The notes below the pieces were generated by a model that made no database searches, was not told the DNA's origin, and worked only from the letters and a program-made list of their open reading frames with translations. Of a DNA stretch of 64,000 bases, positions 4,648-32,524 are shown in pieces (position 1 is the stretch's first letter; each line of letters begins with the position of its first letter). Source of the DNA: Pseudomonas fluorescens (lineage in GTDB: Bacteria > Pseudomonadota > Gammaproteobacteria > Pseudomonadales > Pseudomonadaceae); NCBI RefSeq assembly GCF_902498185.1, contig NZ_CABVIX010000005.1, forward strand, positions 186,001-250,000. The letters run 5' to 3'. A program made the position numbers and the translations under genes.

Positions 4648-5343
4648 ATGGATGAATCGATGAACGCACACAGTCTCTTTCCGCAGATTGGCAAGGTGAT
4701 TGCCAGCACCGGCAGCCGGCATTTCCCTCGGATGCTGCATGACCTGATCCGCACACAGCTCACCGTGGATGCCACACACCTGCGCCAGATACGCGATGAA
4801 CAGCAAGTATCTCTCGGCCCCGCCCCCACCCTGCTCAGCGAAACGGTGTTCTGCGAACCTCACGCGCATCTCTGCGCCCTGGACGGTCCCGCCCGTCTGG
4901 ACCTGGCCCGCCGCAAGGATGGTTTCCGGTACGAGATCAGCGTGTACCGTGCCCATCCGCCGCAGGGGTTTTCCGCCCGTGAACGCAACCTGCTTGAGGA
5001 GATTTCTCCGCTGCTGCTGCCGATGCTCGAGAAGCACGTCCGCGCCCTTCAGCCCGCCGCTCGCGTGCTGCCTGCCGCCGCCTCGCCCGCTCCGGCACAG
5101 CAGAGCCTGCAGGCACGCTTCGCAGAGCGTCTGGACCATGCAGGTCTGACGCTGTCCGAACGCGAGCTGCAGGTGTGCATCGGCCTGCTGGCCGGGCACA
5201 CCGCGCCGGAGCTGGCCGAACGCTTGCAACTGAAAGCCAGCACCGTCGACAGCTACCTCAAGCGCGCGGCTGTCAAGCTGGGCATCAGCGGTCGTCACTC
5301 GCTGATGCGCTGGATGTACGGTGCACCGGAACACGCTGCCTGA
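4648..5343 (+). CDS. LuxR-family transcriptional regulator, downstream of NRPS
   Basis: Protein of 231 aa with a C-terminal LuxR helix-turn-helix (LTLSERELQVCIGLL, then STVDSYLKRAAVKLGIS, residues ~165-220). The N-terminal half has neither a recognisable acyl-homoserine-lactone domain nor a receiver domain. LuxR proteins of this kind flank most Pseudomonas lipopeptide synthetase clusters and activate them. It shares the same architecture and a KRA-KLG-SGRH-L tail with the upstream LuxR (32920-33723). The gene converges on the second NRPS gene and its last 49 bp overlap the NRPS 3' end. ATG 4660 is an alternative start. The target is inferred from position. Confidence 0.85.
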   Translation: MDESMNAHSLFPQIGKVIASTGSRHFPRMLHDLIRTQLTVDATHLRQIRDEQQVSLGPAPTLLSETVFCEPHAHLCALDGPARLDLARRKDGFRYEISVYRAHPPQGFSARERNLLEEISPLLLPMLEKHVRALQPAARVLPAAASPAPAQQSLQARFAERLDHAGLTLSERELQVCIGLLAGHTAPELAERLQLKASTVDSYLKRAAVKLGISGRHSLMRWMYGAPEHAA

Positions 5344-8300
5344 GTGTCGAACCACCAGGCCGCCAGACTGAACACATCCGGCGTCCTGAGAATGCTGAAG
5401 TGATCCCCAGGCCCATGCCAGGTCTGCAGTTGCGGCATCAGCTGTTGCCAACCAGCGATCATGGCAGCGTGCTCGTGCTCGTTGCAGGCCGTATCCAATT
5501 CAGGATCGGCCAGCAGCACCAGGCTCACCGGGCCGCTGTAGTCCTGCCGCGGCAGGTACACGGTCCGCAGTGCGCTGGCGAAACTGCGGACCAGCCCCTG
5601 CAGTGCCTTCGGCGCAGCGCGCTCTGGCAACAGCCCCACCCGCACCATGGCTGCCTGCAATAGCCGCAGTTGACTGGCGTCATCGGTCTCGGCAAATGCC
5701 TCACGCTCGAGTCCCAGGTCCTTGCCGCTCGAGCGCTGCAACGCTTCGGCCAACAGTTCCAGTGCAGCGGTGAGGGTGTAGGGCTGGCCGCAGGTGCCGC
5801 GCCCGTCCGGGGCTTCGCTGTCGATCAGCGTCAGCGACGCGACCTCGCGCCCCCGGGCCTCGAACTTCACCGCCATGGCATGGGCCACCCAACCACCAAA
5901 GGAATGCCCGGCCAGGCTGAGCGGGCCATGCGGATACAGCGCCTCGATGGCCCGGACATGACATTCGGCCGCCGCTTCCACCCGGCTGTGCGGCACGCCG
6001 GTGCCGTCCAGTCCCCGTGACTGCAGCCCATAGACTGGCATGTCCGGCCCGAGCGCCTCGGCGAGCGTGATGAAGCGAGTGACGCTGTCCCCTGCTCCCG
6101 GCATGCAGAACAAGGGCGTGCGCCCCGCCTGGCCGCTCTGGATCGCCAACAGCGGCTGCCAGACCGGCGTCACGCAGGGGCCGGAGCTGGACAAGGCCTC
6201 GTGGATCGCCTTGCCGAGCACCTGCACATGGGGCGCCTGCATCATGCTCACGTGATCGCCCGGCACCTCGACGCAGTTCACTGTCTGACTCGGCAACGTC
6301 TCGCTCCAGCCCAGGGTCATGCTGCCCGCTGCCTGCTCGGGCACCCGTTGTCCCGCACGGAACAGGTGCACCGGCACGCCCAGGGGCTCGAGCCGGTAAT
6401 GCGCCAAGGCGTGACCGTGAGCCACTTCGCGCTCCAGGTAATGCCGCAATTGCGCATCGCTTGCCTGCGCCAGCTGCTCAGGCAGGACCTGGTGCTCGCG
6501 GCACATCCGCAGCAGCGCGTCGAAGTCCAGCCCATGCAACTGGTGCGCGGCCTCGACCGCTGCCATCGCCGTCATGCCTGCCTCGCCCGATGCTGCAGCG
6601 TGGTCGCGGCAATGTGACAGCAACTGCCGTTCGAGCAGCGCCGGACCTTGCCAGCGGGCCTTGCCGCGGTCGGTCAGGCGCGGCACGTAGGTGTCGATCA
6701 GGCCAAGGAAACCGACCGGCTCGTCCATGCCCAGCAACTGCGCTGCCACCTCGTAGGCCAGCACGCCGCCGAACGACCAGCCGGCCAATCGATACGGGCC
6801 ATGAGGCTGTACCGTACGGATCTGCTCGACCAACCGCGCCGCCAGGCCTTCCAGCGTGCGCGCGGGCGTTTCGCCCAGGCCAGTGCCGGGCAGCCCCAGA
6901 ATCGGGAAATCGCCGGGCAAGTGCTGCCCGAGCACCGGGAAATAGGCATCCAGGCCAGTGAAGTCGTGCACCAGGAAAAGCGCAGGCTCGCCGCCACCCT
7001 CGCGGACCGTGACGAGCTGTGGCGTGTCCGACGGCGCTGCCGCACGCTCTTCAAGCACGGTGGCCAACGTGGCAACGCCAGGGTGCTGGAACAGGTCGGC
7101 CAACGACAGCATATACCCGGCCTTCTGGATCAGGCTGACCAGGCGGATCGCCGAAAGGGAATGCCCGCCCAGTTCGAAGAAGCTGTCGTGCCGCCCTACC
7201 CGCTCGACCTCCAGGACCTGCGCCCAGAGCCCGGCCAGGCGCTCTTCCAGCGGCGTCGCGGGTGCCTCGAAGCGCGCGGCCGCCAACGACTCGATGCTCG
7301 GCATCGGCAGCGCACGGCGGTCGACCTTGCCATTGGCAGTCAATGGCAGTGCATCCAGGCCCACATAGGCAGCGGGCACCATGTATTCCGGCAAATGCGC
7401 GAGCAAGTGAGCCCGCAGGGCCGCCCCATCGAGCGCCCCATCGCGCCGGGTGAAGTAGGCGACCAGGCGCAACGCACCCTGGTCCTGCCGATGCGCCATG
7501 ACCACCGCCTCACCGACCCCCGGGCACGACGCGAGTTGCTGCTCGATCTCGCCCAGCTCGATGCGCACGCCGCGGATCTTCACCTGGTCGTCATCGCGGC
7601 CCAGGTACTCCAGGTTGCCGTCGGCCAGCCAGCGAACGAGATCGCCGGTGCGATACATGCGCGCCTCGGGCAACGGGCTGAATGGGTCGTCGACAAAGCG
7701 TTCGGCGGTCAGTCCGGGACGGTTGAGGTAGCCACGAGCGACCCCGGCGCCCCCGACATACAGTTCGCCAGGCACCCCGAGCGCCACCGGCTGGCAGCGC
7801 TGGTCCAGCACATAGAGCCGGGCGTTGCTCACGGGCTTGCCGATATGCAGCATGCCGCCCGGCTCGATCACACCGGAGCTGGCAACCACCGTGGCTTCGG
7901 TAGGCCCGTAGTTGTTGACCACGGTAAAGCCTGGGTCGCGACTGAACTGGCGCAGGCGGTCACCACCGATCAGCAGCGTGCGCAAGGTCGGGTGGCGCAG
8001 GTCGCGGCTGAAGGCATACTCGGCCACCGGTGTTGGCAGGAAGGCCACCTGCAGTGGCTGTGCCAGCCACCAGTCGAGCAGCGCGTCGAGCTGATCGTTG
8101 CTGACCTCGGCAGGCGGCAGGTGCAGCGTCGCCCCGGCACACAGCGCAGGCCAGACTTCCCAGGCCATGGCATCGAAGCCGAAGCCAGCGACGCTGGCGG
8201 TGTGACTGCCGGCTTGCAGGTCAAAGGCCTGGCAGTGCCAGTCCACCAGGTTGTTGAGGGTACGGTGCTCGACCATCACGCCCTTGGGCTGGCCGGTGGA

Positions 8301-32000: not shown

Positions 32001-32524
32001 CGGGGCTGCGGCGACTGCCCGGTCACCAGGGCGCTGTAGATTTCGCCCAAGGCCTTGAGCATCTGGCCAAAGCCCCAGCCATCGAGAATCAGGTGATGGG
32101 CCTGGGTGCCGAGCCAATGGTGGTCGTCAGCCAGGCGTACCAGGCAAAAACGGAACAATGGGCGGCCGTCAAAGGCATGGAGCTGCTGCATCTGCGCCTG
32201 CACCAGGGCATGCGCCGCTTCCAGCGGATCGTCCTGCAGGCTGGTGTCATGCAGCGGCATGGCCACGTCCATCGCTGCGGCGAAGCGTTGCAGCGGCAGG
32301 CCATCAGGGCCCATGCCTGGCAGCAAGACGGTGCGCAGGGCCTCATGGTCCGCCACCAACTGTTGCAGCGCTTGCTGCAGCAAGGCCGGGTCAACAGACC
32401 CGTGGAGCTCGACGTATCCTCCGATATTGTAGAGCGGTGACTCGCCCCGGCTCATCTGGTCGAGCCAGATATCGCATTGGGCAGCGGTCAGCGGGTAGGT
32501 GTCGGCGGCAGACATCGGCTTCAT
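23042..32524 (-). CDS. NRPS, modules 1-3 of a lipo-octapeptide
   Basis: This 3,160-aa synthetase is the first subunit. It starts directly with a condensation domain (HHLILDG near residue 145), which by position should be the lipo-initiation (C-starter) domain joining a fatty acid to residue 1. Then come A1 (~465-950), T1 (Ser ~991), dual C/E (~1045-1490), A2, T2 (~2052), dual C/E (~2107-2540), A3 and T3 (~3115). There is no TE or E domain. Pocket residues are DAWFLGNVV (Leu) in A1 and A2, and DAWQLGVVD (Gln) in A3. The dual domains of modules 2 and 3 should give D-Leu1 and D-Leu2. A GAAGGA ribosome site precedes the ATG at 32524. Three modules here plus five in the next gene match SyfA/SyfB. 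The gene is divergent from a LuxR gene across a 395-bp intergenic region. Confidence 0.93.

What the first reader, a model, noticed from the sequence alone, without database searches (positions are those of the whole stretch)
5295..32524. Complete two-gene, eight-module lipopeptide synthetase of the linear 'factin' type
Seen: 3 + 5 modules, a starting C domain, and tandem TE. Pocket residues read Leu-Leu-Gln-Leu-Ser-Val/Ile-Leu-Leu. The dual-C/E and LCL order predicts D-D-D-L-D-L-D-L. Established: syringafactin SyfA/SyfB has 3 + 5 modules and makes linear acylated octapeptides with Leu-Leu-Gln-Leu at the start. Inference: this strain makes a related linear lipopeptide surfactant, and the factin family extends into a putida-like background.
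Basis: partly seen in the sequence, partly recalled or inferred. Interest (0 to 1): 0.8.

Follow-up and report, generated by a model that had tools for sequence, protein, structure and literature searches.

The report
Deep-branching factin lipopeptide synthetase genes
These two bacterial genes encode a complete enzyme assembly line predicted to make a soap-like linear lipopeptide of the known factin type; the serine at position five seems to have been gained separately from the known serine-bearing factin.

Summary
Two overlapping genes (32524..23042 and 23045..5295, minus strand) encode 3 + 5 C-A-T modules and a tandem thioesterase. Pockets read Leu-Leu-Gln-Leu-Ser-Val/Ile-Leu-Leu. The C-domain classes match other factins, and the thioesterases fall with factins.

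Factin type is well supported. "Factins extend into putida" is already published, and so is a Ser5 factin, virginiafactin.

New here: (i) the window and one fragmentary relative, G076, branch outside the other factins sampled. (ii) Their Ser5 domain groups with serine domains of non-factin synthetases from the host's gyrB clade, while other Ser5 factins group with peptin-type modules. This suggests a second origin of Ser5; a single origin is not excluded (AU p 0.0775 and 0.163). (iii) pleAB is missing at the cluster, and no full-length MacB was found in the genome; 15 of 17 factin genomes examined have one. Clusters without pleAB are already known.

No product was measured. A new member of a known kind.

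The parts
23042..32524 (-). gene A (SyfA-like), 3160 aa: Cstart-A1(Leu)-T-C-A2(Leu)-T-C-A3(Gln)-T
   Evidence: ORF; Pfam 3 C, 3 A, 3 T; pockets read
5295..23045 (-). gene B (SyfB-like), 5916 aa: five C-A-T modules (Leu, Ser, Val/Ile, Leu, Leu) and tandem TE; GTG start overlaps the end of gene A by 4 nt
   Evidence: ORF; Pfam; pockets read
31169..32506 (-). C1, starter condensation domain (lipoinitiation)
   Evidence: coordinates; C1 clade 100/100*; C1-A1 tree
27989..29299 (-). C2, dual C/E class by clade
24983..26116 (-). C3, dual C/E class by clade
21462..22718 (-). C4, dual C/E class by clade
18342..19664 (-). C5, LCL class; its source is unresolved
   Evidence: closest solved structures Txo1/Txo2
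16833..18215 (-). A5, serine domain, the part with a source unlike that of other Ser5 factins
15183..16418 (-). C6, dual C/E class by clade
11961..13286 (-). C7, LCL class
8796..10079 (-). C8, on the dual C/E side of the tree, but not in one clade with C8 of the other four loci
5298..7019 (-). tandem thioesterases TE1 (GWSFGG) and TE2 (GHSFGG)
   Evidence: motifs; Pfam 2 Thioesterase; factin TE clade 95/92*
32710..33723 (+). [quoted passage not shown]
   Evidence: GerE
4648..5343 (+). luxR2, convergent; its 3' end overlaps gene B by 49 bp; in 6 relatives its homologue lies 3.2-3.3 kb away beyond pleAB
   Evidence: GerE
20193..21423 (-). A4 copy of a tract shared with A7 (1231 nt, 99.35% identical, one exact run of 1086 nt)
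10692..11922 (-). A7 copy of the same tract

Best explanation
This is an intact factin-type nonribosomal peptide synthetase. Gene A loads a 3-hydroxy fatty acid onto Leu1 through its starter C domain and adds Leu2 and Gln3. Gene B adds Leu4, Ser5, Val/Ile6, Leu7 and Leu8. Dual C/E domains invert residues 1, 2, 3, 5 and 7. The tandem thioesterase releases a linear octapeptide, predicted D-Leu-D-Leu-D-Gln-L-Leu-D-Ser-L-Val/Ile-D-Leu-L-Leu, the virginiafactin residue pattern. It would act as a biosurfactant for surface spreading, probably under luxR1 control. It belongs to a deep-branching factin lineage (window and G076). That lineage gained its serine domain from cyclic-lipopeptide-type synthetases of the host's own clade, not by the exchange reported for virginiafactin. 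The pleAB exporter genes are missing, so the product must leave by another pump, or not at all. Shown by computation: architecture, pocket letters, clades, gene order, failure to find MacB. Inferred: acyl chain, stereochemistry, linearity, export, function, direction of the exchange.
For: Domains. Pockets. C-domain classes. C1-A1 tree: window + G076 96/94*, outside a 17-row clade (100/99*) that holds the other 15 factin rows. TE with 14 factin rows, 95/92* against 13 non-factin rows. A5 identity 82% to G076 and 71-79% to many non-factin lipopeptide-type serine domains, but 68-70% to the five other Ser5 factins. A5 tree: window + G076 + 10 non-factin rows at 100/99*; other Ser5 factins + 2 peptin-type rows at 100/99*. 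All six genomes giving those 10 rows lie in the host's 11-row gyrB group (100/99*). luxR1/luxR2 order. Published Ser5 in virginiafactin and its jessenipeptin source.
Against: A single origin of Ser5 is not rejected once the peptin rows join the group (AU p 0.0775; 0.163 without the long L063 row). The p of 0.00015 for Ser5 factins alone says little, because the peptin row L062 lies inside them. C5 does not clearly follow A5: window + G076 C5 lies with Gln5/Thr5 factins and one other row at 89/70, unstarred, so the extent of the exchange is open. In one search two of seven rows chosen as outgroup (L027, L028) fell inside the factins, so the root is imperfect and factins are not shown to be one clade. 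The six genomes with the nearest serine domains were fetched because they ranked high. gyrB does not pair the window's genome with G076, so the cluster may have moved between hosts. The labels 'cyclic-lipopeptide' and 'peptin' are inferred from module make-up; no product was looked up. No expression, LC-MS or activity data exist.
Confidence: 0.75

Rival explanations
1. Ser5 arose once. The window, G076 and virginiafactin-type factins share one ancestral serine module; a peptin module was later derived from it or exchanged with it, and Gln5/Thr5 are later replacements.
For: With the peptin rows included, the AU test does not reject one clade (p 0.0775; p 0.163 without L063). The window lineage branches deepest with the root used, so an ancestral Ser5 is thinkable.
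Against: The free A5 tree puts window + G076 with 10 non-factin rows at 100/99* and the other Ser5 factins elsewhere at 100/99*. Identity is 68-70% to other Ser5 factins against 71-79% to many non-factin serine domains. C5 of G334/G141 groups with the P. batumici peptin-type module (100/99*), that of the window does not.
Confidence: 0.22
2. The product is a cyclic depsipeptide closed by an ester at Ser5, as in bananamides, which also have eight residues.
For: A serine is present, and tandem TE domains also release cyclic products (PMC9948697 Fig. 1 legend).
Against: The TE tandem lies with 14 factin rows, 95/92* against 13 non-factin rows. The factin family, with Thr5 and Ser5 members, is listed as linear (tables).
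Confidence: 0.07
3. The cluster is a relic that is silent or not exported, on its way out after losing pleAB.
For: No pleAB at the locus and no full-length MacB found in the assembly.
Against: About 9 and 18 kb of open frame with core motifs in place. Both luxR genes are kept. Published factin producers without linked pleAB exist.
Confidence: 0.15

Closest known systems
Virginiafactin synthetase (Pseudomonas sp. QS1027)
   Same: Factin family, Ser5, promiscuous Val/Leu/Ile site, luxR1 upstream, no pleAB in the cluster (passages). The whole residue order is recalled from Gotze et al. 2019, which is not held.
   Different: Its Ser5 module is reported to come from jessenipeptin; the window's A5 groups with other serine domains. 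QS1027 has a pleAB pair at its jessenipeptin cluster; no full-length MacB was found in the window's genome. QS1027's own genes were not in hand; the Ser5 loci G141 and G334 stood in for them.
Cichofactin synthetase (for example P. asturiensis, G335/L066; P. putida 4A7)
   Same: 3 + 5 modules, Leu-Leu-Gln-Leu-x-Val/Ile-Leu-Leu; known in the putida group; the 4A7 cluster has no transporter genes.
   Different: Gln at position 5; NRPS identity of G335 to the window 68.8%.
Syringafactin synthetase SyfA/SyfB
   Same: 3 + 5 modules, same C-domain classes in the Thr5 locus G094, luxR1 and luxR2 flanks.
   Different: Thr at position 5; pleAB-type genes in DC3000 but not in B728a and B301D.
Serine modules of non-factin lipopeptide-type synthetases in the host's gyrB group (G257, G371, G259, G110, G144, G024)
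   Same: A5 groups with 10 of their domains at 100/99*.
   Different: They sit in non-factin synthetases. 7 of the 10 are preceded by a C domain on the dual C/E side and 3 on the LCL side, where the window's C5 lies.

Membership tests
Factin family (linear lipo-octapeptides) | two NRPS genes with 3 + 5 modules and tandem TE | tested here: met
Factin family (linear lipo-octapeptides) | starter C domain of the factin lineage | tested here: met
   C1 clade of window and four factin loci; C1-A1 tree, where the root is imperfect and two rows chosen as outgroup fall among factins
Factin family (linear lipo-octapeptides) | residues Leu-Leu-Gln-Leu-x-(Val/Leu/Ile)-Leu-Leu | tested here: met
   pockets; the script reads the same letters as in P. 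asturiensis (G335) except for A5, one letter of A6, and one letter of A3 that it left unread there
Factin family (linear lipo-octapeptides) | C order starter-dual-dual-dual-LCL-dual-LCL-dual | tested here: met
   (8 C domains each of window and 4 factin loci): the two classes agree at every position; single-position clades for C1, C2, C3, C4, C6, C7, not for C5 and C8
Factin family (linear lipo-octapeptides) | linear product | not testable with these tools
   TE clade 95/92* with factins is indirect
Virginiafactin subtype | Ser at position 5 | tested here: met
   DVWHLSLVD
Virginiafactin subtype | serine module of peptin (jessenipeptin) origin | tested here: inconclusive
   free tree says no (100/99*); AU does not exclude it
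Pseudomonas lipopeptide clusters in general | cognate pleAB exporter genes at the cluster | tested here: not met
   absence is already published for QS1027, 4A7, B728a and B301D, so it does not exclude membership
Putida group host | placement beside named P. putida group strains | tested here: inconclusive
   gyrB: in an 11-row group apart from four named non-putida anchors; no named putida genome in the set

The most novel reading that the evidence does not exclude
The factin family reached the same serine-5 peptide twice. A deep factin lineage independently took a serine module from cyclic-lipopeptide-type synthetases of its own host clade, and at least one member works in a genome with no PleB/MacB pump, so that a lipopeptide surfactant is exported by an unidentified route.
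Probability: 0.45. Interest if true: 0.55.

Novelty: new member of a known kind. Interest (0 to 1): 0.4.

Why it matters
If the second origin holds, the same octapeptide surfactant evolved twice by exchange at one position: a natural test of which module borders work in synthetase engineering and of what selection favours at position 5. The missing MacB makes the strain a simple place to ask which pump exports a Pseudomonas lipopeptide. It also suggests that pleB-based typing, described as diagnostic (PMC8788793), would miss such producers.

Tried and rejected
Considered and rejected: that the finding is chance or a fragment (complete modules); that it is a bananamide-type cyclic octapeptide system (TE clade; bananamide synthetases themselves were not compared); that the RND pump at 51704..56004 is the cluster's exporter (about 19 kb away, no link shown).

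Led nowhere or redone: automatic pocket reading was off by one at position 278, and the scripts slip at 299/301 of Gln pockets, so A3 was read by hand. In G345 the script found 7 of 8 A domains (its A3 motif was not recognised). The first gyrB tree used wrong-frame ORFs for at least 4 of 30 rows and was replaced. The first Walker-A search used too narrow a pattern and was replaced. The genome-contig scan kept 79 loci, many not Pseudomonas; 29 of them were offered to the first A5 tree, and 15 of those, with 12 loci fetched later, to the module work. Rows dropped: modules without a recognised T motif on either side; L063 and the duplicate L201; G295 (contig end) in the 3'-end counts; G380, G192, G326 and other short first frames were not fetched, so 17 is not a full census of factins. 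An AU test that all factin C5 domains form one clade was rejected (p 3.7e-6).
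Full report
What is there. Two large minus-strand genes lie back to back with a 4-nt overlap: gene A (32524..23042, 3160 aa) and gene B (23045..5295, 5916 aa). Pfam finds eight condensation, eight AMP-binding, eight carrier and two thioesterase domains (three contiguous pieces covering both proteins). No stop codon interrupts either frame. A divergent luxR lies upstream (32710..33723) and a convergent luxR downstream (4648..5343), overlapping the end of gene B by 49 bp.

Predicted peptide. Pocket residues were read at GrsA positions recalled from memory. 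Five domains read DAWFLGNVV (Leu), A3 DAWQLGVVD (Gln), A5 DVWHLSLVD (Ser) and A6 DALFFGVTF. A6 has the same letters as A6 of the Ser5 factin G334, and relaxed Val/Leu/Ile choice is reported for syringafactin and virginiafactin (PMC9948697, passage); position 6 is the flexible one in P. syringae factins (PMC9769872, passage). In a tree of the eight C domains of the window with those of four other factin loci, C1, C2, C3, C4, C6 and C7 each form a clade by position; C5 and C8 do not. C1, C5 and C7 lie apart from C2, C3, C4, C6 and C8. With the usual meaning of starter, LCL and dual C/E classes this gives D-D-D-L-D-L-D-L. The class names are recalled; the tree shows the two classes, and C5 is closest among solved structures to Txo1 and Txo2.

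Factin membership. I scanned 398 genomes of the genus (drawn evenly from a larger group) with the starter C domain. From the answer I picked 15 loci whose first frame was about 3.2 kaa or, in G051, one fused frame, and fetched them. Fourteen have both genes in reach. In 13 of these eight A domains were found and their readings fit factins, some letters being left unread by the script; in G345 seven of eight were found. G295 is cut by a contig end. Position 5 is Ser in G051, G334, G287, G141 and G387; Gln in G370, G335, G018, G066, G345 and G147; Thr-type (DFW) in G094, G313 and G026. Collinear protein identity of the window to these 14 is 62.4-72.5%. The thioesterase tandem groups with the 14 factin rows (95/92*) against 13 non-factin rows; one of these (L208, from G024) is its nearest outside relative.

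A deep lineage with one fragmentary sister. The best match to A5 in the 398 genomes is G076, at 82%. G076 is a draft of 650 contigs. Its contig C626 carries a luxR match and the start of a gene A (69% to the window), and C481 carries modules 4 and 5 in the window's order (70-76%), broken into three frames. In the C1-A1 tree the window and G076 pair (96/94*). The other 15 factin rows, with two of the seven rows chosen as outgroup, form a 17-row clade (100/99*). So the deep position rests on the five remaining outgroup rows, and factins are not shown to be a clean clade.

Where Ser5 came from. Along the proteins the window is about equally like Ser5, Gln5 and Thr5 factins outside module 5, apart from low Ser5 means near the gene A/gene B border, where the Ser5 group's best value is normal and I take the low ones for misalignment of single loci. 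Its A5 is 68-70% identical to A5 of the five other Ser5 factins and 71-79% to serine domains of many other lipopeptide-type synthetases; some serine domains in very long frames also lie at 68-72%. In a 48-row A5 tree the window and G076 join ten rows from six genomes (100/99*). The five other Ser5 factins join two peptin-type rows, from P. batumici and P. viridiflava (100/99*). 'Cyclic-lipopeptide' and 'peptin' are my labels from module make-up, not from products. The second group agrees with the published view that virginiafactin took its serine module from jessenipeptin, a C-A or T-C-A-T exchange (PMC9948697 and PMC8097286, passages). The six genomes behind the ten rows were fetched because they ranked high; all six lie in the 11-row gyrB group of the window's host (100/99*). 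Against this: with the peptin rows included the AU test does not reject one clade of Ser5 domains (p 0.0775; p 0.163 without the long L063 row). It rejects Ser5 factins alone (p 0.00015), but a peptin row lies inside them, so this says little. C5 is weakly placed with Gln5/Thr5 factins (89/70). I favour a second, independent exchange of at least A5, and do not call it proven.

Export. The order luxR1, NRPS genes, pleA, pleB, often luxR2 is published as usual for lipopeptide clusters (PMC10928948, passage). Of 15 factin loci with the 3' end in view, 9 have a MacB-type ORF of 676-695 aa ending within 3.3 kb and 6 do not: the window, G334, G141, G094, G313 and G345. In the window luxR2 touches gene B, and in G094, G313 and G345 it lies 0.1-0.4 kb away; in six relatives it lies 3.2-3.3 kb away beyond pleAB; in the other five no luxR2 match was found in the stretch held. 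In the whole assembly the MacB model finds four weak matches (at most 74 bits) in 434-823 aa frames. FtsX matches lie in frames of 398-442 and 823-860 aa, none of MacB length. A PleB query finds matches to its ATPase part, and one weak match (24 bits) to its C-terminal end. Of 17 factin genomes (window, the 15 fetched, G076), 15 have a MacB match above 150 bits; the window's genome and G345 have none. All nine other genomes have one. The assembly is rated 100% complete in 80 contigs, so a gap could still hide a gene. pleC was not searched for. Clusters without pleAB are known (QS1027, 4A7, B728a, B301D). Genome-wide absence was not mentioned in the passages I saw, which is not a claim that it is unpublished.

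Recent event. A4 and A7 share a 1231-nt tract at 99.35% identity with one exact run of 1086 nt; on the same diagonal identity falls to 25-42% upstream and to 25-75% downstream. This looks like recent gene conversion between two Leu domains; an assembly effect is not excluded.

What is known and what is new. Factins in the putida group are published, and a Ser5 factin is published. Clusters with database hits to virginiafactin are also reported in P. viridiflava (PMC13387001, passages). The text searches used were 'virginiafactin', 'syringafactin', 'cichofactin' (83 papers hold at least one, 40 listed), 'virginiafactin' alone (11 papers), and factin/pleB/putida terms (15 papers, 12 listed). In the passages read I saw no Ser5 factin in the putida group and no second origin of Ser5. 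Papers seen as passages only: PMC9948697, PMC9769872, PMC8788793, PMC8097286, PMC10928948 and PMC13387001. Verdict: a complete factin synthetase, a new member of a known kind, with an interesting origin of one domain and an open export question.

Noticed in passing
window 20193-21423 and 10692-11922: A4 and A7 Leu domains share 1231 nt at 99.35% identity with a 1086-nt exact run: recent gene conversion or an assembly effect.
   Followed up: partly
G051:C1, L029/L030: The factin synthetase reads as one single 8759-aa frame instead of two genes; that assembly is 8.7 Mb with 9% contamination, so it may be an artefact.
   Followed up: no
G287:C1, L037/L038: Gene B of this factin locus is split into two frames of 3880 and 2214 aa; cause not examined.
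   Followed up: no
G000:C4 about 59860-96840: A set of large NRPS frames (5899, 3247, 4405 aa) that looks like pyoverdine synthesis (my guess from layout), in a genome where no MacB of PvdT length was found, although eight gyrB or flank neighbours have at least one MacB.
   Followed up: partly
G345, L054/L055: Another factin genome (4.4 Mb, Gln5) with no pleAB at the locus and no full-length MacB found; on gyrB it sits in the same group as the window's host.
   Followed up: partly
window 49521-56004: A histidine kinase gene (49521-50921) near an HlyD/AcrB-type RND pump (51704-56004); any link to lipopeptide export untested.
   Followed up: no
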